A DNA stretch of 64,000 nt from Patiria pectinifera (Eukaryota; Echinodermata; Asteroidea; Valvatida; Asterinidae), in assembly GCA_029964075.1 (NCBI GenBank), contig CM057136.1:16418381-16482380 (forward strand), given 5' to 3'. A model generated the notes under the pieces. It searched no databases and was not told the DNA's origin. It worked only from the letters and a program-made list of their open reading frames with translations. Made by a program: the position numbers and the translations under genes. Each line of letters begins with the position of its first letter. The stretch's first letter is position 1. This document shows positions 7,160-64,000 of this stretch, in pieces.

Positions 7160-7398
7160 TTGCAAATGTTATTTGTATCCCTCTGGCTTTTAAGCCAGAA
7201 GGAGGATTTAATTGTGCTAGTGTATTCCCTCTGTGTGTTCGTCCGTCGGTTCGTCTGGCTGGAATGTCCGTCCGTGTGTAACATTTTGGTTAGGTTAACT
7301 GTTTAGTACTGTCATATAAAAAGTCAGACTTCACTCTCAACCAAACTTGGTGACAATAAGCTTTGGGTAGAGGAACTTCAGATTACTTGAGACATTTG

Positions 7399-7411
7399 AG
7401 GTCAAAGGTCA
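7399..7411 (+). promoter_or_regulatory. DR1 nuclear-receptor word, copy 1
   Basis: AGGTCAAAGGTCA is a perfect direct repeat of AGGTCA with one spacer base, the site type bound by RXR heterodimers, HNF4 and COUP-TF. It sits inside the dispersed repeat, so the sequence is clear but function is not shown. Confidence 0.45.
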
Positions 7412-7553
7412 TCTAGGGGTCAACAAGGTCATTGTTCATCTTTGTTAGGTAACTTGAAAAGTGCAGCCATATGAAAAGTCCGACTTCACTCTCGACCAAA
7501 CTTGGTGACAATAATTTTTGGGTAAGGGGACTTCAGATGACTTCAGACATTTG

Positions 7554-7566
7554 AGGTCAAAGGTCA
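7554..7566 (+). promoter_or_regulatory. DR1 nuclear-receptor word, copy 2
   Basis: A second perfect AGGTCAAAGGTCA exactly 155 bases after the first, in the second repeat unit. Confidence 0.45.
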
Positions 7567-7665
7567 TCTTTAAAATTAGGTCATTGTTGATTTTGATTAG
7601 GTCAACTGAAAGTGTGCTTACTAACTTATTGTATAAATACTGCCTTCATGCCAGGGGAGGATTTT

Positions 7666-18300: not shown

Positions 18301-19340
18301 GATGTTATCAGACCAAGTATAGCTGTACTTAACTCAGAGAGCAGTTACCAAAAGACAAGTGAAAGAACAACAAAATATAAATTTCTTGTTAAATTGAAAG
18401 AAGGCAATGTAAAAATGTACGATGACGCTTAGTTGCCCGTGTGCTCAAAACGGCGTAGACGAATCGAATACTCCTGAAGGAATGTGTGTGTCATGGTTTT
18501 AATTTGCTTGAATTAATATTGAAATTGTATGAAAAAGGACGAAATTGAACACTGCAAGTGCACTAAATCGACTCTGCTGGATGCGTTTGAATATTAGAAT
18601 AGGTGAATTGGACAGAAAAACGTTTGAAATAGTCGGAAACAACTATTTTAGTTGGAACTGCAGTATGCAGTATACCAAACGGGTATGTTTTTGTTATTAT
18701 TTTGTTCACCAATAAAAAACAACCATCGAAACGAAACGCCAATTCGACACTATCGAAACTTTGACATTGCAAAACATTCTTGCCAAACTTATCCTTTAAT
18801 TACGAGGAAGGCTTCACCACTGATGACGACACTCCGTTCTTATGCATATTGAAATTACCATTACCATATTTATGAAACAGTTGCCTTATAATGGCATGGA
18901 TTCACAGGTACTGTGCGTGTTCCACATTCCAGCCAGGAATCCTAAATACGGGGACTCGCCAATTTTGTCTGGCATTTACAAGCAGTCACTGCGAGGCATT
19001 CTGTCCACAAAACTCATTAGTTTCCTTGAGGATGGGTGACATACTTCAAGTCTGACCGTTTCCAATCAATCATGACTGAGTCCAGGAATAGCAGGTTGAT
19101 TTTGTTTTTGTTTGTTCGGTAATGATCAGAAGTTAAATGAAGACTACAAATACTGATTGAACAGCTTCTGGGGATCTTTGATTTAGAATGGTAACAGGGG
19201 ATATTTTGAAAAGAGCGATGAATGATAACTATAATTAAACTTCTAGTCGATAACGAAAAAATGGGGTTAAGAGATCACGAACATTGAGGTGTTGTGATTT
19301 GCGTTCTGGACAATGTCTTTTTTTGTTTATCATCTTTGTT
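15335..19340. other. Intergenic, no supported gene
   Basis: No convincing coding exon on either strand. A perfect CRE octamer TGACGTCA lies at 16803-16810 and a poly(T) run at about 16407-16419. The open frames are short and unrelated to anything I know. Confidence 0.5.
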
Positions 19341-31613: not shown

Positions 31614-32651
31614 GAGCGTCTCAGCTGAAAGCTGTAGTTGTTCAGATGAGAGCGTTGTATTGGCGTACTGAAGTCCCTTGGTGTCAGCTTTACCAGTGAG
31701 CAATCTCATAGTCAGCGGGTACAGATCCATAGAGACTCCGGGAGTAGCTCGTCCTAGCTACATCCACGAGCACTCTTATGTGCTTTGCTGGGCTTTTAGC
31801 GTACCGTCAGAGAGAAACAGCCGGCCATTTGGCTGGTTGCGGCTGATGAGATTTCAAGAGGTCTCGCCGTTCTTCGTGCTCCGGAAACGACCACAACTTT
31901 TTTTCTCATCTCTCGCCCTTCCCCGCCCCATTATTATACCGTGAGCCACCCGGGTGCTTTCCGCGTCTAGTCAAGCCAAACGACGGCCCACGTATCGCCA
32001 AGAACTTTCTGTACTGCTTCTCCGTGCGTCACAAACGTAATTCAGAAGGGATCATACCCAGATTACCGCATAATGTAAGTGTAGCAACTCGCTTTGATGT
32101 CAGTGAAATCCTAGCTCGACAGAGTGGATACTCGGACTACTCCTTCAGGGTGATTTGCCAAAGTAGATGGAGCCACACCGGACATCCATGTAAAATGAAA
32201 CCCCACGGTATTGTTGAGGACTGCTAGTTTTCAAACACTGTATCTACTGTCATAAAGTCAGCGTTACTGGATTGATCTGACACCCAGGAACATCTCGTCT
32301 TCGACGGGATAAAAAAATTGAGTCGTTACAAATCACAAGATGATGGTTTGACTTGTAAGCAGGAACATCGCTGATCCAGACTTGACACAGCAAAAGTAGT
32401 TTGCTTCTGTTGTTTCCAACCGAGGAGAACGAGAAATCCGTTGCACAATCTAGGATTTTACCTTTGATAGCACTGCACTAAACCCAACCACTAAAAGGGT
32501 TAGACTTTCAAGACACATGCACGACTAGTTGCTCCGTCGTTCCGCGTCTGTGGAATCGCTGTTAACATTTTTGAATGATATTTAGCTTTATTAAAGAGAC
32601 ATCACTGCAAGTTTATTACAGGGGAATCTTAGGAAGATCGCAGAAGTAAAA

Positions 32652-33241
32652 ATGGGTGGCACAGCCAGTGATTTCATGGACTATGATGATTACTATCCTA
32701 TTAATGATACTTTCACGCATAATATGGTTCCGCGTGATCGTATCATATGGAGCGTGGTGGTATCAGCAGTTATGCTCACAGCGGCCGGGGGTAATATTAT
32801 CGTCATATGGATAGTGGGTACCAACCCTCGCATGCGAACGGTCACAAATTATTTCCTGTTAAACTTGGCCGTTGCTGATGCCTTGATCGCAACTCTAAGC
32901 ATGCCTTTTCTGTTTAGTTTCATCGTCACGCAGAATTGGGTGATGGGTGCCACTATGTGTCGCATGGCCAGATTCATGGGGACTGTCTCCACTATGGCAT
33001 CAGTGTTATCCTTAGTGGCCGTCTCTGTGGATCGCTATCGAGCCATCGTCCACCCCTTACTGCCACGCCTCTCCAAATCCTGCATCATTGGCATGATTTT
33101 CTTTATTTGGGGCGGGGCCGCCTCTTTTGCTAGTCCTCTGTTCCTGTACTCCCACCTGGTGACGTTTGGATACGTGAACGGGCCGGTAACGCAGTGTTAC
33201 GTCATCTGGCCGGATGGAGTACAGAGAGAATACGAGTTTTG
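32652..33241 (+). CDS. Plus-strand receptor, exon 1 (N-terminus to ECL2)
   Basis: 590 nt coding residues 1-196 plus two bases of the W197 codon. Covers TM1-TM4 and the ECL2 cysteine. Donor GGTAAGAG, with GT at 33242. The frame stops immediately if read into the intron, confirming the splice. Confidence 0.95.
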
Positions 33242-36200
33242 GTAAGAGACATTATCTTTATCAATCAGTTACTGTACAACCAAGGGCACATGGATATATT
33301 CCACTGGATATACCACGATATATTGCATTGGAATATATCCATTATTTCAAGAGTTTTTTTTTCCAATTTGAAAGACATTGTCATCATCAGATTTGGTCTT
33401 GAGTCAGTTGAAAAACTAGTTGGGAGTTACAGACCCTTGTTACGTCATAATTACGTCATAATTAAATGGCTACATTCATATTTTACAGGTTTAATAACTA
33501 CTTGTTTTAGATGGTGTTCTTAAAATATCTATCGTCAAAAAGCCTAAATTGAGCATATTATGACATACTGCCAATAACAATGTTTGTTGACTTGTTTTTG
33601 CGACTTTTTGTCTGAAAGAGAATGGCAAGCTGAAACTTTCTATCTATTATCATATAGTCGAATGATGTTTACTGAACTGAAATGTTATTGCAGTTTGAAT
33701 ACTATGCTGGGATCGAGTACACTATGCGCATGCGCAGTGGGGATTCTACCGCAATCGTTCCAATTACCAGGTGATGAATGTGACAATTATCATGATAACA
33801 ACTTGCATCAATCACACCATTTTGGTAAAATTCCGTCATTAAGCCATCTTTGAGTGCACAAATGACTGCCTGGTTATCTTAATAGCAATATACAATCGCT
33901 GAAACTTGAGAAACAAACACATTATTTTTTATCTATTTCGCATTTTCACGGATTTACGAGAGAAGATCAAAGGCCCGATTCGCACAACGAAAGCAGACGT
34001 CTTTCCTCTAATGAAACGAACCCGAAGTCACACGTTTTATTTACCATCGCAAGCTGTGTACAGGCACCTGGGTTTATGAAAGGACAACACGGCAGCAAAC
34101 GCGACGCTACCCTGCAAAAATATTCCGATTTCTGAATGCCACTCGCCGATTGGCGTGAACAGGCTATACGGAAAGGGTTTCTCGGATCTTTGCTGACGGT
34201 AATGTAAGGTGTGAAGCGATATACCTTTCTAAATGCTGAAAGGCAACGGATGTCTCTTCCTGTTTACCGAACATGGATCCCTCAGTCAATTCATGTGGAG
34301 TTGGGACTTGATTCCTTCAATGGCAATTACACCATGACTGCCCTCAGTGCCTTAAGGCTCTCTGAAGGGAAAACAAAACAATCGAAGTTTCTAGAACTCT
34401 GAAATGGTTTGCCTTAAATCGACCACACGATCCTAAAAACAACTGATCATGATCCAACTAGAATGAAAGCGGTATAAAAGATTTAAAAAAAAAATATTTG
34501 GAGATAACAGTCTGAAAGCTTTATCATAATATTCGTTATATTCGGTTATTCAGGCATATTTAGTCAAATTAATGATAAATAAAACGATTTCCAGGAAAAG
34601 AACTGGAGCATGATTAAGTCAATTAATCATAATGTATGTCTTTAAGGCTAATTTAATTAAGACCGCGAACATTGTCTCAATATTGATTCTTATCACAAGG
34701 TTAACCTTGACAAATGGGCAGGCTATTTCAAAACCAATTAATTATTCAAATGAATGAAGCCTCAAGTCGGCAGCTTATAAGCAAATATCGGCATCATGTA
34801 AATATTAATAGGGTCCCCCTGACAATGTTTTTTTTTTGGGGGGGGGAGGGAGAGCGGTGGGTTTGAGTAGGCGAATTTTTCTCAAACGGAAAGGTCAATT
34901 TGTGAATCGTAAATCAATTTTAGTTCCGGTTACAATGCAAAGTCACTTTTTTTCTCTAGTTACTTTCTTTTTCTATGACGTAGCCTACTAATCGGCCTTA
35001 ATTAAAGGCATATATTATGATAAAATGTTGAAAGAACATGTTAAAGCACAGATATCTTGATAACGTGAACGTGACATTTATTACTTGGCCTTCGACGTAG
35101 CATTTTACGGGGGATTACTTTTAATCTTGGCTTTAATCAAAATCCTTTGAAGTCCCATTTTTCAAAGATTAACTTCACTTTAACAGAGACACTGAAGGAA
35201 ACATTAATGTCAACTATAAGGTGAGATACGGAGAAGATAAATATGTCATCTCAAATTTGCAGTGTTCATGTATACCTAGCGGCAAAGTCACCACGCAGCC
35301 TGATAGATCAAGATAATGTCCCCAGGTTAAACGTGTTGAGTTTTGACTGTCTCTCGGCAAAACCTCTCCAATGTCTGTCATGTTCAATTAAATTTGCACC
35401 TGTCACGATACACTAAGCATATTCCCATAGGTCTCGTGCATGGTGACAAACTTTTACCATTTGTCTTCGCATTAGGTATAATGTGGCGACTTTTACTGTG
35501 GTATACTGCGTGCCCTTGTCCATACTGGCCCTGTGCTACACTGTGATTGGTGTCAAACTTTGGAGGAGCGGAGTTTTGGGGGAATATATTCCTAGTCGGG
35601 CAAGACACATCAAAGCCAAAAGAAAGGTGGGTAGTTTGATTTCTATTATTATTAGGCCACCACGACCACCTGTTTACGACATACAAGAGTTTAGTAAGCA
35701 CACGAGGATACACAGCAATAATAGAGACAGTGCATCATGTGACGTCGTGGCTGGAGTCCTGCGCTGAGAAATTTCCAGAGCACATCCAAAAACTTAGTAA
35801 ACAATTCAGACAACGTCGGGATACAATACCTGTGCCAATGGTTTGGTTCATTATCGGGCCATGATACGCACGTGACACGGTCTGCGCATTCTCTCTCTTA
35901 TTTTTGTGAGAAAAAAAAAAAAAAGCAGTCGCCAACGCAACTTTGTCGGGTATTTATTATACAGACCTCACTGTATGACGCCGGTACAAAATGATCGATA
36001 ATTCAATAACATGAGATGAATGTTGAATCGAGCGTCATACCTCGTTTCAGCGAACGTCGGTGTCACGTGACAACGACACAAATTTGTAAACAAATGCCAC
36101 GTCTTATTGGCATCGATGCGACCTTATGAGGCATCATCTTTTCAAAATAGTGGGCATGGAGCATGCGCAGCCCCCCCCCCCCCAAAAAAAACTACTGTTG

Positions 36201-47319: not shown

Positions 47320-50300
47320 CTGGAGTTAAGGCAAACGAACAAACAAACACAATTTGAGACTCCGAATCCTCATATGAAAGAAACAAATTTAATGAATAGA
47401 GTTTAAAAAAAAATTGAAATATTTATGCTGCAAAAATTCATAATTTGTGAAGAATGAGATTAATTTTTTTTTGAGCGGGAAGAGTTTCTCTAGCATCTTA
47501 AAAATATGCATATTAACTGCATCAGTTTCGTGACAATTTTGTTGTACATACCTGTCGTTCAGCCAGCAGTAGATGAACGGATTGTACATGGAACTACTCA
47601 TAGACAGAGTCCAGATAGCAAGGTACACGTGTACAGCGTAAGGCTTCATGTATATGTCATCGTGTAGAAAGGCAAGGAACTGGTAGACGTGCACTGGGAA
47701 CCAGCACACAGCAAAAACCGCAATGACTAGCACGATCATCTTCACGACCTGAAGAACATGACAACAAAATGTCAAATTTATACCAATGTGATTAGATAGT
47801 AGGATGCAAGTTATGGAATAAATCTACAAAAAAACACCCCAAAAAAAACAAACTAGAGAGCACTAAGAGAGCGCAAATCTCCGCCGAGGCATATATAACA
47901 ATTGAATCAATCTACTTTTGGTATTTAGTTTAATTATAATCACTATTTACAATGGGCGTTCAGGTTTTTGCATTATATAGATCGGCGCGCACATCGGCGC
48001 GCACATCAGTTTTTACATTCTTCCATAAGCTTATCTAGCTCCCAGTCTTCTTGAATTTTAATGGTTCTTGATTCTGGAGTGCTGAATGATAACACAAAGC
48101 AACCGATGAAAACTGGTGTGCAAATGAATAGATGTTTTCATCGGATGACGTCCGTCCGCCCCCATCTACAAGATACACTTTACTTAATAATCCGTATTAA
48201 AGTATGGAGAAATCCATCATATGGATTTTAAGAAAGACTGGATTTAATCTTGGAATTGCAAATCTTACAAATTGTGGTTTTTACCGAACATGTATAAAAA
48301 AAAGGTATTTCGTCTCTTGCTGCACAAGAATCACAACGAGGATGGACTCAAAAGCAGCGTTCGTTGACAGAATCTCAGCTCATCTGGACTTTCTAGCAGA
48401 CATTCTCTCTCTACACAAACCCTGAGTGACTGTGACATTATGCACTCGGCGGGGATTTCATTCATCAGTAAACTCGCGCACCGTTCCCTCCAATATCTTG
48501 CCAAAATATAGGCCTGAGTTTTGCGAATAATCACCCATGCAAGTGGAGGCTTACTTGACACATAACTGTCAGCTTGTATCAACATCACTGCTGATCCGAT
48601 TTGAAAGCTTTAATCTTTTGGAACTGTGGAGTGTAAATGAAGCAATATCACTGGCCTTATACCTGACCATTTTTTATACCCGAGTTGCCACATTGTTATT
48701 CTACCAAATAACAAGGTTTCTCCACTCCGAATATCTACGAATTCAAATTTTCTGTTTCGCTCAGAGACAAAAATGCTCCACAATCTAAGTGCTTTTTCTG
48801 CGATATTTTCGTTGAATCTGTTTTTTTTTTCGGGCGGGTTTGAACAAAAAGATAGTAAACATATATATATATTTTTGTATAAGACGCAAATATGATTTTT
48901 CGGCTTTCAAAATATTTGGCGCCAACTGTTCACAATTGTTTGTTGGGGTTTAAAAGAGAAGTGGGAGGCCAAAAAATCGTTAAAACGTACACAATTGTTA
49001 CCCAAAAGGTCAAAACATATCTCCAACTGCATTCTGTTTATGATTTTGGTCGAGCAGCCGACCTTTTAAGATGATATTACGTCTTGATGTTTTTCTAAAG
49101 GAAAACGAAAACATCCTACCTGCATTCATCACAATACAATGGGAGGGAAAACACTTGAAACTAAACGAGGCTCATTGGGGACGTAATGTGATCATGAACA
49201 CTGCTGGCTATTTCTATTAATTTCTTTAACGGGAATGTGCGTTCGAGGGACAAAGTCGTCAATAGAATGTTTAACTTTCAAGATGCACAACATTCTTGCC
49301 GTATCTGTTTATAAATGGACCTTATGGTCTATAGTCTATCCACAAACAAAACTCTTTGGTCGGTTCGTTTAATCACTTTCAGACTCCGATTTTTTTTCCA
49401 GATAGATATCTTTCTTTCAAATATAGGCCTATCACCGCTCTAATGTCGTTGAACTGTTTGGTTACAATATTTTGCTTAGGCAAATTACGTGCTTAGCGAG
49501 ATTCATTGCAAAACCTTTTTACACGGGATCGACTTTCTAGCCCCCCAAAATCTTAGACCGTTCTCGTTCTCATCTGAGCAGATTTGTGTGAGTTCATTGC
49601 AATTCCTTGAAATCGACCCCTTTATGCAGTACCCTTAATGACCAGCACTTGCAAGGATCATGCCAACCCACTTGACCCCCTCCCGTTCACTTCCAATCTC
49701 CAACTTGACATCTCATTATTATGGTCAACGAGTCCTTCGTGTGGCGTACCTTCCGTTTTGCCTTGAGTTGTCTGGCCCTGTTGGGTATGTACTCCCCCAG
49801 CACGTCTCCTCGCCATAGCTTCACACCAATGACAGTGTAGCAGACAGCTAGTGTGGCCAATGGTAGGCAATACAACACCGCGAATGTGGTAATGTTGTAC
49901 CTGTAACAACAACAAATGTGCATGATCAATACCGTTATCCTGTAGGTAGAGGTCGCACTATAGGGTAGTTATTAAATAACACTTATGTATGACGTCATCC
50001 TGCTCGTTGATTTCATTTTTGCTAGCATACTTCTTAATGCTTTCATGAGAGAAAAAGACCTGGAATTTCATCATGGCTGCTGCATATGCAGAATACTTGA
50101 TGAGAATGGCCTTGGGAGGTTTATTACAAGGCCGTATCCGTGTCTCTTGTCAAGAGCTTTTGTCTAGTTCCTCGTCCATGGTAAATACGTAGGGAAATTA
50201 CGAGGACAGTCGAAGCCGCAACTCAGGAGGTCCGTTATGGACACGACCTAACTCTACTAGACAGAGAGAGGTAGTGAAGCCAAGGACCACACTACTAGAA

Positions 50301-52526
50301 AAAAAACTATATTGGCCCAAGTTTAAGCTCGGTCCGTCTCAAGTCATATTACAACGTACTCCAATAACGTCATATATGTACGGGATTTTGACACATTCAG
50401 ACTGGTGCCGAGAATGCAATCAGCATGGTGCAACAGCGCTCAGGTGAGCAAGGTGCCCGACTCTCTCTTGTATTTTATCTTTCTCTGATAAAAAAATGTT
50501 TCTCTGAGGGGACCCACGTGGTAAAAAAAATAATGAAGCCTTGTTAAATTGGGGCGTCAGTGTTTTGATAACCGTTGTCTTTGAGATATTGCCTTTTCTC
50601 GCCCCAAGCGCCACATCGATCTGCACAGCTTCCTAATTGGTTCGAATTACATGACAAGTTGAAAGATGACACCATCCTCACAGGAATCGCCGGCTTTTAT
50701 CAACATGAAACAAACGTGTCCCCCGTGCGTGGCATAGAACTGATGGAAACCAGTCCGTTTCCTTTTACTGATATTTCATGGCGAGGCTAACAAGTACTGT
50801 TTTCTTAAAAGATGTAATTCCTCAGAACATGTCATCATAAATTTGAGACCTCAGACATTTGTGCTTGCATGAGGTGTGGAACGAAATGTGAAACATTAAG
50901 CTCCCTAGACATTACATTCTGACGAGTTTTGACGAAGAACTCGCTCTTTTCCCACTCCGCCTTTGGGCATGCAGAGCCTCGATCTGGCAACTTTACACAA
51001 TAAAAAAAAAACCGGTTCAGTGATCTGAACCCCGACACGGAATCACTGAACTGGCTATATTCATTGTGTAAAGTTGCAAGATCGAGGCTCTGCATGCCCA
51101 TGGCGGAAGTGTGAAAACAGCGAATAGAGTGGTTCGAGCGTTTTATATTTATCTGCTTTGCGCAGCGGAATTTGAAATTATGACAGAAGCAACAGTGCTA
51201 AGGCTGGAGTATTCATCTTGCTATAGCCAGGTTTCTTGGGTAGGCCTATAGCTGAAGAACGACCCAGGCCTATAGCTGAAGAACGACCCACTTAATCACG
51301 AATAAATGACGTGAAATCATCAGTTTTATAGCCTCCCTTTAAACTGTTAGTTGACCTTTTATTGGCTGAGCAAACATGCTATAACGTTACCATCGAGACA
51401 GGGTACCATAATATATAAACTCATTCTCTGATTGGATCAGACCAACTATATCGCAGTCTCTTGTTTTGCATGATAAATAAGACTCAGTGTCCAAATTTTG
51501 ACCCTTTATAGAACCACAAAATGCCGCATCTATGTCACCTTATGGTGTTGAAAAATTCTGACATTAGTAGTGAGTGTTACCGTCTGTGACACTGCTTTAT
51601 CATAGAGCAGCCACGATACAACTACATGCCTCTGCCATGAAACTAGGCAACTTGAGTGAGGTTCTCCGATGTCGTGTGAGGTTTCTATGGGAGGTTAATT
51701 ACGTGGTATGTGTCTTGACGCCACATGGCCAAAGTACTTTCTGTGGTAAGTGTTTAAGGTCATATAGGGTAAATGAGGAAAATGTCGATATTTTCATGGT
51801 ACCAATGTTTAAACGTGTTACTCCCACGATTCCGTTTAATAATAGGCCTATGTGCCCTCTTCATGGATGAAGTCAGGAGATTAGACTGTTTAGTTGAAAG
51901 TCTCAAATAAAAAAGAACAGGGTAACACATATAACTTACGTAAAGTCAATCTGGTTGAGTACTCCGTCCGGCCAGACCACCATGCATTGTCGTTTGGTCA
52001 CATCTCCGACGTAGGTGAAGGAAAAGATCCTCGAGTAGAATAAGAGAGGACTGGCGAAGATGGAGGCGCCTCCCCAGATGACTGCGATCATACAGACGAT
52101 GTAAGACTTGGAGAGACGAGGCAGGAGAGGGTGGACGATGGCACGGTAGCGATCCACCGAGACAGCCACAAGGGAAAGCACGCTGGCAGCCACGGACACC
52201 GTTCCAAAGAAACGCGCCACTTTGCACATAGCGGCACCTAGAGCCCAATTCTGAGTCACGATGTAACTTGCTAGGAAAGGCATGCTTAAGGTGGCGATCA
52301 AGGCATCAGCCACGGCCAAGTTCAACAAGAAGTAATTAGTCACTGTTCGCATTCGGGGATTGGTGGCCACGATCCATATGACAATGAGGTTACCCCCCGC
52401 AGCGATGACCATGATGGCAGTGCAGATGATGGTCCACGCCACGCGCGACTCATTGTCCATGTTGTGAACGAAGGTGAAATTGACGACGTTGTTGTCTTGT
52501 ATTCCGCCACTGTTTTGACCTCCCAT
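47085..52526 (-). CDS. Tachykinin-type neuropeptide receptor, minus-strand copy (class A GPCR), complete gene
   Basis: Paralogue of the plus-strand receptor, 389 aa. Coding exons in reading order are 52526-51940, 49900-49750, 47748-47552 and 47319-47085. The N-terminus has two sequons (N16 and N25). Landmarks are LAVAD in TM2, C101 and C181 for the ECL2 disulfide, DRY 125-127, CWFP 261-264, NPFIY 302-306 and a cysteine after FRAGFKRVFR. All three introns interrupt at the same residues and in the same phases as in the other copy, and exons 2 and 3 have identical lengths. The start is the first in-frame ATG (the frame continues upstream only to a GTG), and its MGG matches the MGG start of the paralogue. 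The tail ends SVVDSTEDIF, as in the sister gene. Resemblance to tachykinin receptors is clear; the ligand is unknown. The two genes converge, 8.4 kb apart. Confidence 0.94.
47552..47748 (-). CDS. Minus-strand receptor, exon 3 (TM6-TM7)
   Basis: 197 nt from VVKMIVLV to CWLND plus two bases of R312. Carries CWFP and NPFIY. Acceptor ATGTTCTTCAG, donor AG|GTATGT. Confidence 0.96.
47749..49749 (-). other. Minus-strand receptor, intron 2
   Basis: 2,001 nt with no further exon recognised. Includes the 12-base tandem ATCGGCGCGCAC (47981-48004), an AT dinucleotide run (48861-48872) and one TAGGCCTA word at 49424. Confidence 0.85.
47981..48004. repeat. 12-bp tandem duplication
   Basis: ATCGGCGCGCAC twice in tandem, followed by a partial third unit ATC. 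CpG-rich in an AT-rich intron. Confidence 0.85.
49750..49900 (-). CDS. Minus-strand receptor, exon 2 (TM5 and ICL3)
   Basis: 151 nt. Acceptor TTGTTGTTACAG. The first base completes T196, then YNITTF through YTVIGVKLW to QLKAKRK. Donor AAG|GTACGC. Confidence 0.95.
50939..51124. mobile_element. Foldback element with long inverted arms
   Basis: The left arm (about 50939-51001) and right arm (about 51061-51124) are inverted copies sharing GGGCATGCAGAGCCTCGATC followed by TTGCAACTTTACACAAT (one mismatch), with weaker pairing outward (TCGCT.TTTTC.CAC). The 58-base centre holds a second inverted pair, GGTTCAGTGAT and ATCACTGAACT. No coding capacity. It lies in intron 1 of the minus-strand receptor and looks like a MITE or foldback transposon. 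Confidence 0.75.
51242..51289. repeat. 24-bp tandem duplication
   Basis: Two identical 24-base units (AGGCCTATAGCTGAAGAACG plus ACCC), including the AGGCCTA word frequent in this window. Identity suggests recent duplication. Confidence 0.9.
51940..52526 (-). CDS. Minus-strand receptor, exon 1 (N-terminus to ECL2)
   Basis: 587 nt coding residues 1-195 plus two bases of T196. Donor TTTAC|GTAAGT. Contains TM1-TM4, DRY and the ECL2 cysteine in RQCMVVWPDG. Confidence 0.96.
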
Positions 52527-53060
52527 GATTCTGATCAATTCTGTCTTCCGATGAGCAACTAAATCAATAGTCACTGATAAAACTACACACACTCAATCTT
52601 TCTTATAATCCTGAAGCACTCTGGTAAGTCTCTGCTGACGTTGCAGTTGACTTGAATCAAGTTTTACATTTAAAGGTGTCCTCTATTCCAGCACTGATTC
52701 TATTTTTACAGAGTTTGCACTATATAGAGTTCAGGCTATTACATTAAGGTTCAATTCATGGTTCAATTCAATAGCGTGAACGTCAAAACTCTATTTCACA
52801 TCTCCAAACACCAACTTACTTCCATGGAAACACGCTAATATTTTCGTCCTGTCGTCCGCGAACAAACTGTTTTGACAAGAATCTCCCTCGTCTTCCGTTT
52901 TATTTATGAAGTTGTTCTTCTTATTCAGCATATCGGCCCGAATTTCCCCTGACGACAACACTCCTCATCCTATCGAAATATCACCGGTGTCGAATTTTCC
53001 GCACTTCATTTGAGAATTCATTTTCATTGTCAACATTCCCGTGGTATTCTCTTTGATCCG

Positions 53061-53078
53061 ATTGGACGACTGACGTCA
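53061..53078 (-). promoter_or_regulatory. CRE plus CCAAT box, candidate promoter of the minus-strand receptor
   Basis: A perfect CRE TGACGTCA (53071-53078) lies 5 bases from an inverted CCAAT box (ATTGG at 53061-53065), in a small GC-rich patch 540 bases upstream of the start codon at 52526. The position suits a cAMP-responsive promoter, but no TATA or transcript start can be assigned. Confidence 0.35.
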
Positions 53079-56000
53079 CGAGCGCAGGCGCAGAAACCTC
53101 CGCGGCAAGATTTATACGAATAAAGCCACGTGGGATGAGTCAACGTCCGTGCATGAACCATACACTCATAATCCTCATCATGGCGATTGAAGCAATCTAC
53201 AGTGGGTGTAGGACAAGCCTAATACCGTGGTTTGATACTCTGTTAATTCGTCAAATAAACTTCCAGTAGGCGTATTTTAGTTTTCTTACAGTAGGGACCT
53301 GTGGCTAGGTTATTGTTCGACTTTGAAGGCGATCATGTTTTCACCATCTGAGCCTTCCGTGCCTCTTTCTGAGGTATCGATTTCCTAATATCAGCCACAA
53401 GTTGACGAGAAACCCCTTTATGAAATAAAACTGTGGCCAGTCGGCGTAGCGGATCGATATATCCAGCGAGCGAGTGAGTGGGTTCGGCTCAGGGTAGTTT
53501 AATCCCTGAGTGGGGCTCTGGGCACTATGCGGGCGCGCTTCTCCAGTCGAAACGTTCCACGGCACTGCATAAGCTAAATTCTAGCTCGAGAATTGAAACA
53601 GGAAATCTTGAACAGCCCAGTCCTTTTCTCTCACACCTTGACCGCCGAGCAATAGATAAATTCTCCGGAGAACGGGGAGCACGCTTTGCAGGGCAGCCTG
53701 ACCAGTCAACCGGGACGTGAACGGGCGAAGCTGTGACCTAAATCAAACGAGACAAGACGAGACACACACATTTAAAATACCTTTTCACGGAAAGAATTCA
53801 TTGAAACGTTTCCGTTCCCGCCTGGGAATGGAAACATCCGGTGTTTAATTTCCCAGAATGGGATTTGATTTTCCTTTCTATAAATACAGAGACATCAAAT
53901 TGATCGGAAAGCGTGTCCAATTCACGCAATCACGCTTAGCACCCTGAGTGCACCGGAAACGATTTTTTTCTAAACAGTTTCTCTTGTATAGAATTGCATC
54001 TACAGTTAGTTGATCATTTTGAACAAGTCAGTGTACCAGATATTCAAATCTGACTTGTGACGGGCACGTATAGGTTTTCAAAATTCACACTGCACAACAG
54101 TACATTTACGTGTCACATTCTATGATAAACATTGAACAAGCGGGCAATGTTTTCGTTGCCTAGCTTGCAACGGGTCCCAAAACATTGCAATGTAACAATT
54201 TACTGCCTCGACAATTAAAAGCCTCTAACAAATTGACAGACTGAAGGAGAATGGTTGTCTTGAATGACACCTCAATGTTTAATGTCTTATCATTGCCAGC
54301 ATCAAGTACGGTCTCATCATCTCTCCAATGTGCAGCGAGTTGCCGTAGGACACACCATTAAAGCCATTCTGCGCACGTGCTTCTAACGCAACGGAAGAGC
54401 TCAAAACTTTCCCGGGGATCACCTAATTGCCACACCGCGCGCTACGCGCCACGCGCCTCTAGGGGCCTGGGATAACTTCGTATCAACCTTTTTTTCTTCT
54501 TTGAACCCATTTAATCACTCCCGGAGAAGTGGCATAAATTTGTCTTGTATTTCACAACCAAGCATCGACAACCGGTGTCGGTTCCGTAAGGAATCTTGTC
54601 GGCGCGACTATAGGAAATGCGCAAATTAATTAGCCTCGTTAAAAAGTCTGAATTGCGAGACTCAGCTGTAGTCGCATTTCAAGCCGTTCGATTCGCCCAA
54701 GGCACGAAACCATATCGTTAAGGAGCATAAAGAAGAACTGTACAACTCGTTAAAAAAAATCGACCTTGATTCTTAGTGTCTCACAACTGAAACCAAGTGA
54801 TTGGCATTCGATTTCGTCTGGCATCGATCCACACGGAAGTATGTAAACCACAAAACCTGAATACTAACTTACAGTAGGCGATTTTTTTTTTGTAAAGAAA
54901 TGAAATGAAGTACGGGATTGATTTAACCAAAGTTTAGCTAATTGTCTCTTTATTAACCAATTTTATATTGGAAATCTACCACAAACAACCTTCCTTTTTT
55001 CACTCTTTTCGCTCTTTGATAGCGCCAGTGTTGCGGATGCTCAGATAACTACGAAATAAACCTTTATTTTGCCACAACGAAGCTTTCCCAAAAATGTTCC
55101 ATATTCATTGTCTTTGCACAGCTCTAAAAAGTCCGTTTGTTTCCGGAAAAATGGTGTTGTTTTTCTTGTTAAAAATCTCTTGATTAGGTACAGTTCTGAA
55201 TATTTCACAAGTCAAATCGTCTTGACGTGCGCACTCACCCCTCATTAATTACTCGATCTCCGAACTGACCCGAGTATTCTTTCTTACAGCGTGATGACTC
55301 GTGCGCGCTGGAGAGGCAAAGTATCTCGGGCGAAGTTACCGCTTCGATTACAAGCAAAACACGTGTGGCTACGCGTGTAATGAATTCCCAATGGTGGTGT
55401 GGTCATATCAAGGGAAAGAGAGATATGCCGACTTAACGCTCTGCAGTGATTAAAGGGTGTGACAAACTGACAACATTCCAAAGAGAAAATTTGGATGTGA
55501 AATTTATTTAAATTTAACGGTGCATATACTTAATATAGAATTCGAATCCAATATTAATTTTGTTGTACCAGATCATCGTGATGCAGGCCTATGTGCAGAA
55601 AAAAAGGCAGAAAGAGGCAACTTTCTTTCGACAAGAATGCTCACTGAATTGTGCGCGCTAATCTATCATCAATCGCTCATCTCCAGGGAGAATGGAAGCG
55701 AGGCTAGACTCTGTTAAACTGATAAGAGTCTATCAAGTGACCGTAGTCTGCCAATGTGGTCTCGTTTTCAACCTCGCTGACAATACAATGAGGTAGGCCT
55801 ATACATTGCACTAACGGCAAAGTCAGTAAGCGTATGATACGAAATGGCACCGAACATTGCAGAGGCTGAACACAGTTCGGTATCTAGGGCAGCCCAGCGT
55901 CATGTATGCAGCAAATGCAGCAAATCCTATTATCAATTTTCCCAATTTTGCTCATCTGTCCTCGCCTCCTCGCCTGGCATTCCTACGCTGCCTGACACCA

Positions 56001-58279
56001 TCTTGTCAATCAAGACGACAGGTTACCTAAATGCAAATACTTCACATTTTGGAAGCAGCTGTGTGCGCGGGACGCTGATTGAGTGACTGTCTGCAATTAT
56101 GATAGTTGATGAGGAGAGCTAATGACAGATGATTCAATGAAATGCATCATCAGAAAATTGGTTACAACTTCTGGAAATTTAAAAACAGGAAATGCGTTTA
56201 CGGAAACAGTCGCACTAGTTTCCGTATAAGTTATACATAAATCATGGTACATGGTCTAAAAGGCCAGATCAATGTAAATCCGAACCAGGATGAAGATGTA
56301 TTTGATATTGACACACTAAAGTAAACATCAATCGTTTGAAATGGCGTTAGCTGTTCCTTTATTTTCCGGCAATGTCAGTCAAATTTACAGAATTAAAAGA
56401 TGTTCGATGATTATATCAGCCATTTGAAAAAAGTCTTTATTCGTATCGAAGCTTTTGATGGCATCGCGTTACCAATGATAACTTTCACAAGTTGGTCTCA
56501 TGTTTTAAGTTCAAAGGTTTTTACACTTTTTTCGACAAGCAAGACATTAAACTCAATACGAGATGCAACACGAAGTTTCAACTCTTCTGGGAGTATGAGT
56601 GGAGACATTTAATTTTGACTGCTGCAAATTGCGAGAGAGAAGAAGAGAACGGGAAACATGATCATCTCATAGCCGCGTAATACACCATAAAATGAGGCGC
56701 AATCGTGTATGAAGCCGCAAGTGCTAAAACCTTGTTTACAGCACGTTTTCAGTGTTCGCGCGGTCGCTTTCCGACGAACAAAAAGAGTCTCCGTGTCCCG
56801 AGAAAGCCTTGGGGAAACAACCTCGTTCCCGGAAGTCAAGATTGTTGACATAACTCTTTTCTTTCAAAAAGGTATTCAGTCGTAAAAAGCTTGAAGCAAG
56901 CTGCGGAAATCTAAGAATGCCAATGACATCGATTGACTTAAGTGCATTTAGGATATTTCCCCCTTGTCGGTGTGAAACAGTTCATTAGCTTAAGGTTATT
57001 TTCTGAGACTGTTTATACTGATATCAACTCCTAATGGAAGTAATTGTGCGCACGTGTTTGAGAAAAAAAACTGCGCCGAAAGTGTTCAAAGGCTTGTGCT
57101 AAACACGGTGTTTTCCATGTCTTCCTTTTATACCAAAAGGGCAAGCTCAAATAGGCCCATCACTGCTAATAAGTTTTGTTTTTATCTAATTCCACAAGCT
57201 TTTGGTAAACTTATGCCGTCAATTGAACAGAAAGAAAACAATACATTAGTTGGCCTTGAAGGGGAAAAATAGAAATCAGGATAAAGAAGAGATTGACTTT
57301 TGATGTTCTTATTTATGAATCTTCAACGCACTTTTCTTGAGAATTTATCCGATATTTGAAAAGAAACTTAAAGCAAATCTTTTCGGGAACATTAACAGTT
57401 TTACTCGCATGACAAGCGGGAGTAATACACGCAAATGTAGCCAAACCAACTCCATATCATTATTATTATTATACCCAGAGAAGTATTATTGGTTTTACTC
57501 TTTTCTAGATGTTGATACACCATCGGGCATGCACCTTTGCAATCTGATTTTAAAAAAAATCAGTTCAAATGCAATCTGATTCTTTCCTTTATACCTTTGA
57601 CCCCTTTTATTGGCTCTTGCACGGCTTTCAGGATCTACTTCTCAGTAGTCTCAGTAGTCTATTGTCCGATCAGCCCACCAAATATTTGACAAGAAGTGCG
57701 CATGCCACTGCGCTTTCCACTAGCAGCGGATTTCCCGCGAAATCTAATTTGCAGGGAGCATACACGGCGCGGGTGGATGATACTCGTCCCCCGCCAAATC
57801 TCCCCAAAATGCGTTTGGAACGATTTTTAGCCGGGTTGTTTACCGGTAAATCCGGGATTTAGAGACGAGGAAATTGATTCCATTCGATGAAATTCCTGCA
57901 CTGACGTTACCAGTCATCTAATTCCTTGAGTCTCCGAGTATCGGAGCTCATAACATTTCCAAGATTTGAGGGGAAAAGGGTTTCCACTTCCTAGGTGGGA
58001 AGGATTACTTAACTCTGAATCGGTATACAAACTGTACATGTTATATTTGTTTTCCCCGAAGAACAGCCTACCTAATGATTAAAAAATGAAGTAAGCTTTT
58101 TCATGTAGTAAACGTCATGACGACAGGTATATATTATATTCATAAGGGTTTGATGAATATTCATTATTGCGCAACTGCAGGCACGCGGTTATCTTGAATG
58201 CTGACCGTGACGACAATCAATGCTTTTTACACGTAAGAGTTGGGACAATACGCAAGACGGATAGTGCCACTCGATGAGT
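53079..58279. other. Intergenic, no supported gene
   Basis: Upstream of the minus-strand receptor. Frames up to about 100 codons show no family resemblance. A short ATT microsatellite lies at 57458-57472 and a TAGGCCTA word at 55794. A CpG-richer patch at 54.42-54.47 kb has no attached frame. Confidence 0.5.
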
Positions 58280-58786
58280 GTGAATATATATTTTTTGGTG
58301 CGTGTGAAAATATGTTTTATTTTTGTACAACGGTCGCCACTTATTAGGCCTATGTGGCGGCCGCCAGATAAAAAGTGGCGGCCGCTGTACAAAAAAGAAT
58401 ATTTTCACACGTACAAAAAAACATATTCACACGTTTTTATGTGGCGGCCGCCAGATAATAAATGGCGGCCGCCACATAAAAAAAGTGTGAAAATATTTTT
58501 TTTGTACAGCGTCCGCCACTTATTATGTGGCGGCCGCCAGATAATAAGTGGAGGCCGCCACATAAGTCGTCATAATAAGTGGCGGCCGCTGTACAATTTT
58601 TTTTTCACACGTACAAAAAAAAATATATTCACACTTTTTTTTTTATGTGGCGGCCGCCAGATAATAAGTGGCGGCCGCCACATAAAAAAGTGTGAATATA
58701 TTGTTTTGTACGTGTGAAAATATTGTTTTGTACAGCGGTCGCCACTTATTATCTGGCGGCCGCCACATAATAAGTGGCGGCCGCTT
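58280..58786. repeat. Palindromic GCGGCCGC array
   Basis: Alternates GC-rich palindromic blocks (GTGGCGGCCGCCA) with AT linkers (GATAATAA, CATAATAA, ACTTATTA) and longer spacers made of TGTACAAAAAA and ATATTTTCACACGTAC in both orientations. GCGGCCGC starts exactly at 58357, 58378, 58444, 58465, 58530, 58582, 58650, 58671, 58756 and 58777. Four pairs are spaced 21 bases, and a fifth partner at 58551 is mutated to GAGGCCGC. Because the unit is palindromic, both strands stay open with WRPP repeats (TGG CGG CCG CCA), which is why I do not call it coding. I know no named family for it. Confidence 0.85.
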
Positions 58787-61700
58787 CCGTAGGGTAGTAT
58801 AATCCCATCATAATAATCATATATAATAGTCATATTTAACCATCGTTCGTCCGTCTTAAAAGCCTAATTAGTCCTTAATCTGTTCTTGATCATCTAGGGT
58901 ATTTTATAGCCTATTATCACGGCCTAGTGCCTAATCGATCCCACGAGAGACAACTTAATCGTTGACAAGACACGCGCCCGATAGACCGGCGCATGACTCT
59001 TCATACCACGAAAATAGATCCCGGCTGTGACAAAAATGTTTTGATCATGAGATTGATTCCTACAAGGCAATTGAGGATATCTCATTCACTCTTTCAAATG
59101 TCCATTAGAATTCAATATTCTTTATTATTACATTCAATTAGGACGACGCTGAAAATGTAAATCTACGGAAATGCAAGAAGGTAAAAATTGTCGAATATTT
59201 TTAAGAGCGCATAATGTTCGGATCGTGACTAGAGGCTCCATTTTTTTTTAACATCGCCAAAGGGATATCTGATTATTTTGTCACACTGAAAATAGGGCAT
59301 GTAAATTTGATAAAAAAATATGAATAGGACAATATTGGTGTGTACCACATGCCAACAATATTGGCGTTTTCAGCTCACGTTGGCATGAAAAAGTATTTGG
59401 CTTTACAATCGACATCAAAAAATGCTTGTAATGGTAAAAAAAATACCAGTGCAATTTTTAAGAGCCAAATTCTGACGAAGAAGAAAAAGAACAGTCCGAT
59501 ATCATAAAGAACAACCTAAGAATGCCAGCATGTTGTTTGTTTTAAGCCAAACAATTTCCATCTTCGTAAGATTAAAGTACGTGGTTCAGATATTTCGGGG
59601 AAAAAAATCGTCAATAAAAATCGAAACCGCAGCGGGTATAACAAATAGCTAATATGCTTGCATTGTCTTGGATCTTGACTATGAACTATGTTGTTACAAG
59701 AACTGATGACTTTAAGATACCAATCTAACACCAACGAAAACATCGATAGTGCGGCTAGGCCTATATAGTACGATTTGGTGAAACATGCATGAGGCATCAG
59801 ATATCGCACCATCGTGATGCATGAGGTGGGAATTGGGGAACGTGTAAAAATATAATCTTACCTGCTGTAAGATGCAGTTTAAACACTCGTTGTTCAGAGA
59901 AACCTCCAACAGTGCAGGAATACTGTCTTGTTGAACTTTAAATCTTCAGGGGTAATTTGGTGTTGTTTTAGCTGCAACGTGTGCTATTCGCGCTTGAGTT
60001 GTCTTTACACTGCGTGGCTTGGTTATAGAAGTAGCGCGCATGTAATGATGCGGTGCTGTTATACCAACAAGCCGTGTAGAGCAAGTGATGGGGCGTGAGC
60101 GATCTCCGCCCGTTGAACTAACTGCGTCACGGCTATACCACAACCCCATGCGTACCTCACCGCGCCAAGTGTCACTCAGAATGTCTTCTCCCGTGTTCCA
60201 TTAGGTTTTGCAATTGACGCCCACCTCGTGCCGTGCTTGCTCCTGCGGTCTGTTTGTTAGACCCGATCACGTTTCCCTTCTTCCACTTTTTTTCTGAGAC
60301 TGCGCTTGCTTCCTTCTTCCGCAACATATTATACGTGTAGGCAAGTACAGTCGCTGGTAGATCGTGCATGTGTTTAGAAATACATGTACTTCTACCTTTT
60401 GATCCCGTGTTTTAATCTCAACAAAGCGAGGAAAAAACGCTGAAAAAAATATCTAGAATTCCTAAATCGCTATCACTGCAATACCCTGAGACTCACTTGC
60501 ATTCATTGCAAAGATTAGCTTTTAATCTAACGTTAAGAGCAATAAACAGTCAGATTATTTTTTTCAACTCGGAAAGAGGAAATTCGTCGATTGTACCATC
60601 TGCATACTATAGTGTAGGATCCTTAAGTTTCTAACCCCGGCACAATCCGCCTCTACATTTTTCCTGGGTTTTACTGGACGGCCCCACATTTCGTCTTAAT
60701 TAGTTTTTCTTGCGAGCCTATTGAGGCAGGTATTTCGGATCATATTCTGCTGAAATGGCGCATCATCGAGCGCAGGTTGACGTTAACTGTTTCTGTTCAC
60801 TTTTAATCTTTTTTCATCGGACCTAACGCCAAGAATTAATTAGACAAACGACGATAATCGCAAGACCTTTTTTTGATCTGAGTCAAACGGCATAATTATT
60901 GTATATCATATAGGTGCATCTACACCAATACAAACTATTTCATTGCACAGCCGAGGCCCAAAAGGAGACAGGATGAGCCCCTTCTCAGCTGTGAGAAGGT
61001 CAATTAGGCCAATTACAGTCTGTGATTAGATTTTCTCGGCGAGCATACTAGTAATTCTATCTGTCGGCTCATTGGAACAAGGTAAATCAAGCAGTGGGAA
61101 CGGCAAACAGTGACATCAATACACGGCTCTAGGTCAGTGCAGTGCTGTCAATGTTTTCAACCTCAATTCACAGAGAGATTTGTGAAGTGGAGAAATTGGC
61201 AATGGTACAATGAACGTTTTGTATGATATCAAGGTAATCACAAAGGAACTTAAATATAGAACAAAACATATCTTAGGGGTACGTTGTTCTGAAGAACTCA
61301 AGATCAAATCAAGCTACAGCCAATTACATTTGATGAAGTTTTACACATTTAAAAAAAGTTCCTCAATGGCGTTCCGTGCGTTTTGTTCATGGTAAAATCC
61401 ATCCTTGATTGGTTTTAAATTGAATTAATAAGAAAGGGAGGTGTTATCAAATTAAAAGAAATTCTAAAACAATTTAAACTTCTTGCGGCGAGTTTAAGGT
61501 GTACTCTTCTCCATCATCTTACAGATTCTTAAGTGTACCGTTTTTCAATTGCAAGGGAAGATACGAATTACAATCAACTTAAGCGGTCACTGCGCGCATT
61601 TATTCATCCAGATGCTTTTACCGCCGCGTGGGTAATCTTACAATCGCAAAATTATTCGCCTTCAAAAAGAAGGACGCTGAGTTTTGATCAGCTCTTCGTA

Positions 61701-64000
61701 ACGGTCAACGGACGAAGATTCAACTAAATCAATTGGTAATCCAACACTGCGATACCCATCCAAAATGAGTTCCTGAAGTAACTTCCGCAGTGACTTGGGT
61801 TACAAAATGATAAATAATTATGTCACTCGTAGATCATGTGCATGATAGTGTTCGCTGGAAGGTGTTTAAGCAGTGCATTTCAAGCCGGCTTGCCACAGAC
61901 TATAGGGATGTTTCAAAGCAGGGGGAGATGTTTCACAGCAGGGAGATAGAGCAAGGTAGCTTAGACAATCCAATAAAAAGTGAAACGCAAGATAATGATT
62001 TCTGAAGACGAACGGATGCTCATCGACATAAACCGGGCTGAACCTGGCACTGCCGCCACCTCGATCTCACTGTTAGCTATAGACCTCCCCACAGGGACTC
62101 CCACTTCACCGTGCAAGCCAATTAGAGCGGCATTAACTATTTCTCATCCGGTTAGGGGTGGTGACGTCACAGGGAGGAGGTAATGCAATCATTTTTGTTG
62201 TGGTCGGGCTGAGAAATAAAAGGTTTTCGAATGGAGCAACCACATCGTAGAACGTACCATCTAGAAGAGGTTTGGCTGTTCAACCGTATGATACACAGGG
62301 TTCCATTTAATTTTTCAATTGAATAACAAAATAAAAGATAAACATTCGATAACATTAACAGATAAATCTTGTCAATGTTACCTTCTATAAAACATAATGC
62401 ACACTATATTCACGACATGTAATTTAAAAGAGTCAAACTGTACACTATATAACATTCAAGTCACAATTGAAGAAAATACATTGTACTATCAAGCAACACA
62501 ATACAAAATTTGCTTCGAGTTCAGAGAACCACTGCAGCTAAATTTAGCAAAGGTTGCAGTCCCCGCAATGCATTATACACGTACCACAGGGTAGTCACGA
62601 CAAATGTCTCGATGCGATCTTTGTAAGGAGATAGGATGATGCATATCTGTGGATTGGCGGCGTTAACATCGATACGGACTAATCTATCCCATGAGCCATA
62701 GGAAACTGATGGGGCTTCATCTCGGTGAAATTAAATCGCAAAAGCGGCTTTCCGATGCTGTCCAACTTTCACTCACGAATCACAAAGTTTGCCGTAAAAA
62801 AATCCTACAATTCTCAACATTTAACAGTAATCTCTCCATGTAGAATATGCAATTTTAGGACTATTTTGGAAGTGAAAAAGTAATGCTTTTTCGATGATGA
62901 CAACTCGTGGTATGAGAATATCAACATCGCCGTCTTTAAAATCATCTAAAGAATGCCAACATCCAAGATGTCAGCCGGGGCTGAAAGCAATCTAAACAAT
63001 AAAACAACTCGCATGGTACCATTACAGCTTATACAAATTGAATCAAATACATATATCTGCCTCTAAATTTGCAGTTCAGATGTAGAATTTATGAAAAATA
63101 GCAAACACAAACACACCTTTAAATTTAATTTCCTCTCGACAATTTTGAAAGCGTCCTGCAAAATTTTTCTGCATTCCACCATTTCAAGCAGTTCCTTTTT
63201 ACGACTCAGAATGCTCCAATTGAATTAAGGTAATCTGATCCTGTTGACGTCAACACAGCAGTTTGTGTTGATCGTCAAACGGAACTTCAATCAAAGAAAT
63301 AAAGTTGTCAAGTAAAGTCGTATTTTGCAGCACAATCCAGAGACTGTTATGCGTTTTTATGCCCGAAGCTTCTCCGTCAAAGGCACTGTTTAAAGTCCGT
63401 CATATAATGATCAAACACAACCAGCCCCCTTGGCAACATTTACTGTAAATATACCGTGTCGGTTCACAGCAAATCTTTCCCTCTTTGACCGCGACACTTC
63501 AGAGTACATATTCAACTCACTGAAAGTGAAATGTTGACATTTCAAACTTACAAAGGCAACAGCCGTCGACAACAATACTGCTCCAGTGAGTCCCAGGTGC
63601 GGAGAGGCAGTAAAATGACAGACAGTTAAGGCAACTTGGCTGGCAAACGGAACTTAATTACAACTGTACATCTCTATTTTGTACCGGAGGAAGCCCCAAA
63701 TGAACTGAACAGTCCGATCTGTGTTTGTCCACAAACACCCAAGGTTGGGTTGTCATTGTAAACAGTGAATGCAAACACTGTAGAATTGTATTTTAAAATA
63801 TCTGAAAGCTTGTCTAAAATTACTTCAACTACAATATTAGCTTAACACGAAACAAAATTTCACTTATAAAAGGTGGAAGTTGAACACGCATATCAATAAA
63901 AACAAAAACCCAGAAAGTTTCAATTCTAGTGTCCTTTCTTCATTCGGGTTACGTAAACGTTTGTAACGCAGGCTCTGGTTTGTAATCCCTCTACCGTTAA
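58787..64000. other. Intergenic, no supported gene
   Basis: AT-rich to the right edge. Open frames stay below 100 codons and none has splice context or family resemblance. A CpG-richer patch at 59.95-60.25 kb holds no recognised exon. One TAGGCCTA at 59756. Confidence 0.5.

What the first reader, a model, noticed from the sequence alone, without database searches (positions are those of the whole stretch)
58280..58786. Array of palindromic blocks with ten NotI sites in about 430 bases
GCGGCCGC should occur well under once in 64 kb of AT-rich DNA (about 0.16 by base composition, assuming 20% each G and C), yet it appears ten times here. The blocks are paired at 21-base spacing and joined by A/T-rich spacers that are themselves inverted (GTACAAAAAA and TTTTTTGTAC; GTGTGAAAATAT and ATATTTTCACAC). 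Each block and several spacers are palindromic, so the locus could extrude multi-armed cruciforms. It could be a new satellite or foldback family, or a hotspot built by slippage of hairpins.
Basis: partly seen in the sequence, partly recalled or inferred. Interest (0 to 1): 0.7.

Follow-up and report, generated by a model that had tools for sequence, protein, structure and literature searches.

The report
Palindromic NotI-site minisatellite foldback array
A 509-base stretch of animal DNA is built from small mirror-image blocks repeated forwards and backwards, so that one strand can fold into a single long hairpin; it looks like a locally amplified repeat or a broken foldback transposon, with no sign of a gene.

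Summary
Ten GCGGCCGC sites lie in 428 bases (58357-58784); shuffles give 0.13 per window. Four more cores are one- or two-base variants. The feature is an ordered array at 58277-58785: Xo Xi Y xi xo Z | X Y xi xo Z | Xo Xi Y. X is an AT-rich 20-26-mer that alternates in strand; Y and Z are GC-rich palindromic blocks acting as mirror centres. Inside blocks, seven of nine core spacings are 21 bp; the others are 21+6 and 21+10. One strand folds as a single hairpin of about 450 nt (z = -32.6). The array is also about 2.5 head-to-tail copies of a ~205-bp palindromic unit. I found no target duplication, no paired repeats in the flanks, no Pfam domain in ten nearby ORFs and no second copy in the window. 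Phage and plasmid records gave no match; three hits in viral and prokaryotic contigs look like chance. Best reading: a palindromic minisatellite grown in place by hairpin-primed template switching, then tandem duplication. A truncated foldback/MITE-type transposon is almost as likely. The own-genome search that would decide did not complete (13 attempts).

The parts
58277..58785 (.). Whole array: alternating AT-rich X blocks and GC-rich palindromic Y/Z blocks
   Evidence: DNA fold of 58277-58786 z = -32.6
58277..58327 (+). X block 1 (Xo, Xi): GTGTGAA..GTAC-type units
58328..58386 (.). Y1: palindromic block, cores at 58330 (variant), 58357, 58378; holds a 6-bp GGCCTA insertion at about 58347-58352
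   Evidence: fold z = -3.6
58387..58432 (-). X block 2 (xi, xo), opposite strand
58433..58484 (.). [not shown]
   Evidence: fold z = -9.4
58485..58507 (+). X block 3 (a single Xi-type unit)
58508..58590 (.). Y2: palindromic block, cores at 58509 (variant), 58530, 58551 (variant), 58582; holds a 10-bp insertion
   Evidence: fold z = -10.0
58591..58634 (-). X block 4 (xi, xo), opposite strand
58635..58688 (.). [not shown]
   Evidence: fold z = -9.7
58689..58733 (+). X block 5 (Xo, Xi)
58734..58785 (.). Y3: palindromic block, cores at 58735 (variant), 58756, 58777; matches its own reverse complement in 48 of 52 positions; the array ends here
   Evidence: fold z = -7.7

Best explanation
It is a non-coding palindromic (foldback) minisatellite. 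Shown: AT-rich X units alternate in strand between GC-rich palindromic blocks, and the inner/outer type of the X units follows the same order throughout. The array can be read both as one long hairpin and as about 2.5 head-to-tail copies of a ~205-bp palindromic unit. Inferred: short GTGGCGGCCGCCAC-type palindromes let a nascent or broken strand snap back and prime on itself. That copied the X units in inverted order around Y, and the finished ~205-bp unit was then duplicated in tandem by slippage or unequal exchange. I propose no cellular job for it; its likely effect is local instability (replication stalling, breakage, copy-number change).
For: Module order and mirror symmetry. Inner X units read GTGTGAAAA and outer ones GTGTGAATA: four of four outer units, and five of five inner units if the single X3 is counted as inner and the damaged x3 is accepted. 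Tandem period: U1 and U2 agree in 160 of 173 ungapped positions. Hairpin fold z = -32.6. Of seven informative columns that separate half-units, columns 87 (T in H1 and H5) and 4 (H3,H5 against h2,h4) fit direct tandem copying. The edges fall at different module borders and show no target duplication (longest shared exact word 4 bp). The flanks share no unusual direct or inverted words. [quoted passage not shown]
Against: Only one locus is known, so local origin is not separated from a dispersed family. Five of the seven informative columns do not follow the tandem register (31, 36-38 and 101; 36-38 may be alignment effects around an A/T run, and 101 is affected by the insertion in Y2). The GC-rich multi-core blocks, in ~40% GC DNA, have no visible local source sequence.
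Confidence: 0.48

Rival explanations
1. It is a truncated or rearranged non-autonomous foldback or MITE-type DNA transposon. The repeated X units and GC cores would be subterminal binding sites for a transposase encoded elsewhere, and the ~205-bp unit would be a tandemly repeated part of its long inverted ends.
For: Modular inverted architecture. The foldback element Tetris carries ~220-bp tandem repeats inside its long inverted ends, served as a source of satellite arrays, and is known in rearranged copies (PMC4079207, abstract and sections 3, 10 and 17 read). That paper also lists sea urchin among organisms with foldback elements. A family with, say, a thousand copies in a large animal genome would often show only one copy in 64 kb (inference).
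Against: No target duplication at the edges, no terminal inverted or direct repeats in 600-base flanks beyond chance, asymmetric ends, no Pfam domain in the ten nearby ORFs tested, of 26 of 70 aa or more listed for 52600-64000, no second copy in the window.
Confidence: 0.38
2. It is a functional element: clustered sites for a DNA-binding protein at two helical turns (21 bp), or the source of a long hairpin RNA.
For: Regular 21-bp spacing and conserved cores, 10 of 14 exact. The single hairpin would be a Dicer-type substrate if transcribed (inference). With lax thresholds the best Rfam match is a microRNA precursor family (MIR2646, E = 2e-16).
Against: No Rfam match at gathering score. All 72 low-threshold matches score below their family's gathering score (MIR2646: 76.4 against 245 bits) and spread over unrelated families, as any long hairpin may. 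No transcription data. 21-bp spacing also follows from tandem growth.
Confidence: 0.08
3. The array is an assembly artefact of a simpler palindrome.
For: Palindromes and tandem repeats are hard to assemble (general knowledge); no reads were available.
Against: The copies differ from each other: half-units are 80-92% identical in substitution columns, leaving aside the 26-base fragment h6, and two blocks carry private insertions. Copying the same reads twice would give identical copies.
Confidence: 0.06

Closest known systems
Foldback transposons with tandem repeats in their inverted ends (Tetris, FB, sea urchin TU; the name TU is recalled, the sea urchin case is cited in PMC4079207)
   Same: Modular, inverted, tandem units of about 200 bp, able to fold back, rearranged forms known.
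   Different: No target duplication, no paired flanking ends, no middle domain, only ~0.5 kb, no second copy seen.
Satellite-like arrays carried by non-autonomous Helentrons (Cg_HINE of oyster, PMC7492417, abstract and section list seen)
   Same: Short tandem array in animal DNA.
   Different: Here the units are palindromes in alternating strand. Helentron ends were not sought by a dedicated search.
Inverted duplications from foldback priming or template switching (PMC10622511, PMC10766183, abstracts and section lists seen)
   Same: Predict inverted copies joined at short inverted repeats.
   Different: Those are large chromosome rearrangements in yeast; here the scale is about 100 bp and a tandem step must be added.
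Repetitive hairpin-forming elements of sponge mitochondria (PMC2800124, abstract and section list seen)
   Same: Short hairpin-forming repeats in intergenic DNA.
   Different: Mitochondrial; this window holds receptor and TGF-beta exons, so it is nuclear.

Membership tests
Foldback DNA transposon | Long inverted repeats built of tandem subunits | tested here: met
   Alternating inverted half-units and a ~205-bp tandem unit; but no separate middle domain.
Foldback DNA transposon | Target-site duplication (8-10 bp in Tetris) | tested here: not met
   Longest exact shared word between the two edge zones is 4 bp, and no word of 8-12 bp even with one mismatch; 539 of 1000 random zone pairs had an exact word of 5 bp or more (count redone).
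Foldback DNA transposon | Dispersed copies in the genome | not testable with these tools
   The genome search 'own' unanswered in 13 of 13 attempts; no second copy in the window.
MITE / TIR transposon | Matching terminal inverted repeats at both ends | tested here: not met
   Left end is an X unit, right end is a Y block. Longest inverted word between the 600-base flanks is 8 bp; 101 of 500 random pairs gave 8 and the other 399 gave more.
hAT transposon ends (Hermes-like) | Subterminal binding repeats GTGGC or AAG(T/C) | tested here: inconclusive
   GTGGC occurs 15 times (8 + and 7 -) in the array; the densest ~510-base stretch elsewhere has 9. But PMC10368747 revises the Hermes site from GTGGC to AAGT (passages read), and GTGGC is part of the repeated core itself. 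AAG(T/C) was not counted.
Minisatellite / satellite | Head-to-tail tandem units | tested here: met
   About 2.5 units of ~205 bp; U1/U2 identical in 160 of 173 ungapped positions.
Structured RNA gene | Match to a curated RNA family | tested here: not met
   0 matches at gathering score in the whole window; 72 matches at E up to 1 in 58200-58860, all below gathering score.

The most novel reading that the evidence does not exclude
The locus is the first seen copy of a new self-amplifying foldback repeat family in an animal genome, whose units grow by alternating hairpin turns (one turn at Y, one at Z) before or instead of transposase-driven movement. The two clean insertions in it (GGCC plus a doubled TA; GTCGT plus a doubled CATAA) would be footprints of other mobile DNA, with unfilled copies beside them.
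Probability: 0.12. Interest if true: 0.6.

Novelty: new member of a known kind. Interest (0 to 1): 0.33.

Why it matters
If it is a local palindrome array, it is a compact natural record of how hairpin-driven copying builds inverted and then tandem repeats, with internal 'before and after' copies. If it is a family, it would be a foldback element with an unusually regular alternating design. As a single locus of unknown function it is a curiosity.

Tried and rejected
Prokaryote/virus origin: blastn of the array against phage and plasmid records gave no match at 1e-5. A 17-base pattern hit two viral-collection contigs once each; in the 601-701 bases that I read around each hit the two have the same sequence and no array. 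Two further patterns gave 0 hits in viral contigs. A 23-base pattern hit one Clostridia MAG once, inside a frame that matches the LGT enzyme family (E = 2.4e-13), in DNA of 58% GC. That 8000-base locus holds three GCGGCCGC sites (0.47 expected, 2 of 200 shuffles reached 3), none in an array. I take these three hits as chance.

Hairpin RNA families: the 72 low-threshold Rfam matches (best E = 2e-16) were set aside because all score below their gathering score and they spread over unrelated families.

hAT link through GTGGC: recalled from memory, then checked; the paper found revises that motif, so I dropped it as evidence.

Protein coding: a 150-aa stop-to-stop frame runs through the array (58265-58717 +). 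I read it as a by-product of the 21-bp (7-codon) period; it has no Pfam match.

Literature: nine text searches. Papers listed of those found: 0 of 0, 1 of 1, 15 of 329, 0 of 0, 15 of 40, 15 of 110, 10 of 14, 10 of 182, 5 of 5. No listed title describes this array; the unlisted papers were not seen. The core string GTGGCGGCCGCCAC is in 5 papers (listing only); by title none is about repeats. This does not show that the array is undescribed, because most subscription papers and the repeat databases are not held.

Duplication history from half-unit variants: tried; too few and partly conflicting columns for a firm order.

Full report
OBSERVATION. The window holds ten GCGGCCGC sites, all between 58357 and 58784; dinucleotide shuffles give 0.13 on average and never more than 1. 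Four further cores are variants: ACGGTCGC at 58330 (two differences), GCGTCCGC at 58509, GAGGCCGC at 58551 and GCGGTCGC at 58735 (one difference each). Inside the blocks nine neighbour spacings can be measured. Seven are 21 bp. One is 27 bp, because Y1 carries a 6-bp insertion, and one is 31 bp, because Y2 carries a 10-bp insertion.

FOLDING. As single-stranded DNA the array gives one hairpin from about 58331 to 58783 at -210 kcal/mol, against -68 for shuffles (z = -32.6; 0 of 100 shuffles as good). Alone, the five GC blocks fold with z from -3.6 to -10.0. Of the five AT-rich blocks, two fold better than nearly all shuffles (z -4.7 and -4.2, but only -2.0 and -5.4 kcal/mol) and three do not (z -0.6 to -1.2). 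This is potential only; extrusion in the cell was not tested.

SURROUNDINGS. The window is animal-type DNA: a TGF-beta domain exon (1362-2423 +) and rhodopsin-family receptor exons (32595-33245 +, 51936-52592 -, 47389-47823 -) (7 ORFs scanned, 4 with matches). GC is about 36-46% per 2 kb. Ten ORFs around the array, of 26 listed for 52600-64000, have no Pfam match at 0.01. blastn of the array against the rest of the window gives nothing better than E = 0.32. No Rfam family at gathering score and no tRNA was found in the window.

BOUNDARIES. The left edge is an Xo unit (58277) and the right edge is the end of Y3 (58785), so the ends do not mirror each other. The longest exact word shared by the two edge zones is 4 bp; 539 of 1000 random zone pairs reach 5 bp or more (recounted). 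Between 600-base flanks the longest direct word is 9 bp and the longest inverted word is 8 bp; most of 500 random pairs give 8-10. So no target duplication or flanking terminal repeat is visible. A five-base match (GCCAC at 58266-58270) hints that a decayed Z may once have stood left of the array; this is too short to count.

HISTORY. Aligned half-units are 80-92% identical in substitution columns if the 26-base fragment h6 is left out (pairs with h6 run from 88 to 100%). Of seven informative columns, 87 (T in H1 and H5) and 4 (H3,H5 against h2,h4) fit tandem copying of whole units. The other five (31, 36-38, 101) group other half-units, and some of these may be alignment effects. The Y3 centre has the CCAGATAATAAGTGG spacer on the opposite strand to Y2 and to Y1, which has it with one substitution, as if the centre had flipped. 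Inverted copying first and tandem copying second is my inference, supported only weakly.

SEARCHES ELSEWHERE. Phage and plasmid records: no match. Viral contigs: three patterns, hits in 2, 0 and 0 contigs; the two hits lie in the same sequence context without an array in the stretches read. Prokaryote contigs: one hit, a single 23-mer inside an LGT-family frame of a Clostridia MAG. These collections are not where an animal repeat would be found. The host genome search did not complete in 13 attempts, so copy number is unknown.

MECHANISM. I judge local growth by snap-back copying around short GC palindromes, followed by tandem duplication, the likeliest (0.48), and a truncated foldback or MITE-type transposon nearly as likely (0.38). 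Foldback elements with ~220-bp tandem repeats in their ends that fed satellite arrays are documented in Drosophila (PMC4079207, abstract and sections 3, 10, 17). By the membership test it cannot be filed as such an element, because target duplication and matching ends were tested and not found; it may still work like one.

SIDE RESULT. The 6-bp insertion in Y1 turns CCACTTATTATGTGG, present without it at 58516-58530 (+) and 58763-58777 (-), into CCACTTATTAGGCCTATGTGG (58337-58357). That equals GGCC plus a doubled TA, and creates TAGGCCTA. Outside the array TAGGCCTA occurs 11 times against 0.36 expected from a second-order Markov model. It ranks first by that ratio among 256 palindromic octamers, and among all octamers seen at least 8 times with more than two letters. 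The four one-base variants that I tried, of 24 possible, were absent. The array therefore shows one such octamer arising by insertion, with unfilled copies beside it. One possible cause is the footprint of a TA-targeting transposon with GG...CC ends; this is speculation.

One count was mended (539, not 535, of 1000 random pairs), one coordinate (GCCAC) and the wording on the chance hits.

Noticed in passing
window 5303, 26806, 42317, 42341, 42808, 43663, 49424, 51241, 51843, 55794, 59756 and in the array 58345: The palindrome TAGGCCTA is about 30-fold over-represented (11 outside the array against 0.36 expected). In the array it is a clean insertion (GGCC plus doubled TA) next to copies without it, which suggests the octamer can arise by a small insertion or footprint.
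   Followed up: partly
58558-58582: A second insertion in the array: CCACATAA GTCGTCATAA TAAGTGG, i.e. GTCGT plus a doubled CATAA, relative to CCACATAATAAGTGG.
   Followed up: no
32772-33151 (+) and 52033-52412 (-): Two rhodopsin-family receptor exons are inverted paralogues (74% identical over 381 columns; Pfam 7tm_1). Two further inverted matching pairs in the same order, 35498-35628/49748-49878 and 36408-36627/47550-47769, suggest an inverted gene duplication with arms of about 4-5 kb.
   Followed up: partly
17990-18029 and 18586-18625: Inverted pair of 40 bases, 92.5% identical, about 560 bases apart; could be the ends of a small transposon.
   Followed up: no
1362-2423 (+): Exon encoding a TGF-beta family C-terminal domain (E = 9.7e-32); looks nodal-like from recall only.
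   Followed up: no
7282-7459 and 7437-7611: Tandem duplication of about 155 bp period at 79% identity.
   Followed up: no
58265-58717 (+): A 150-aa stop-to-stop frame through the array, probably kept open by the 21-bp (7-codon) period; no Pfam match.
   Followed up: yes
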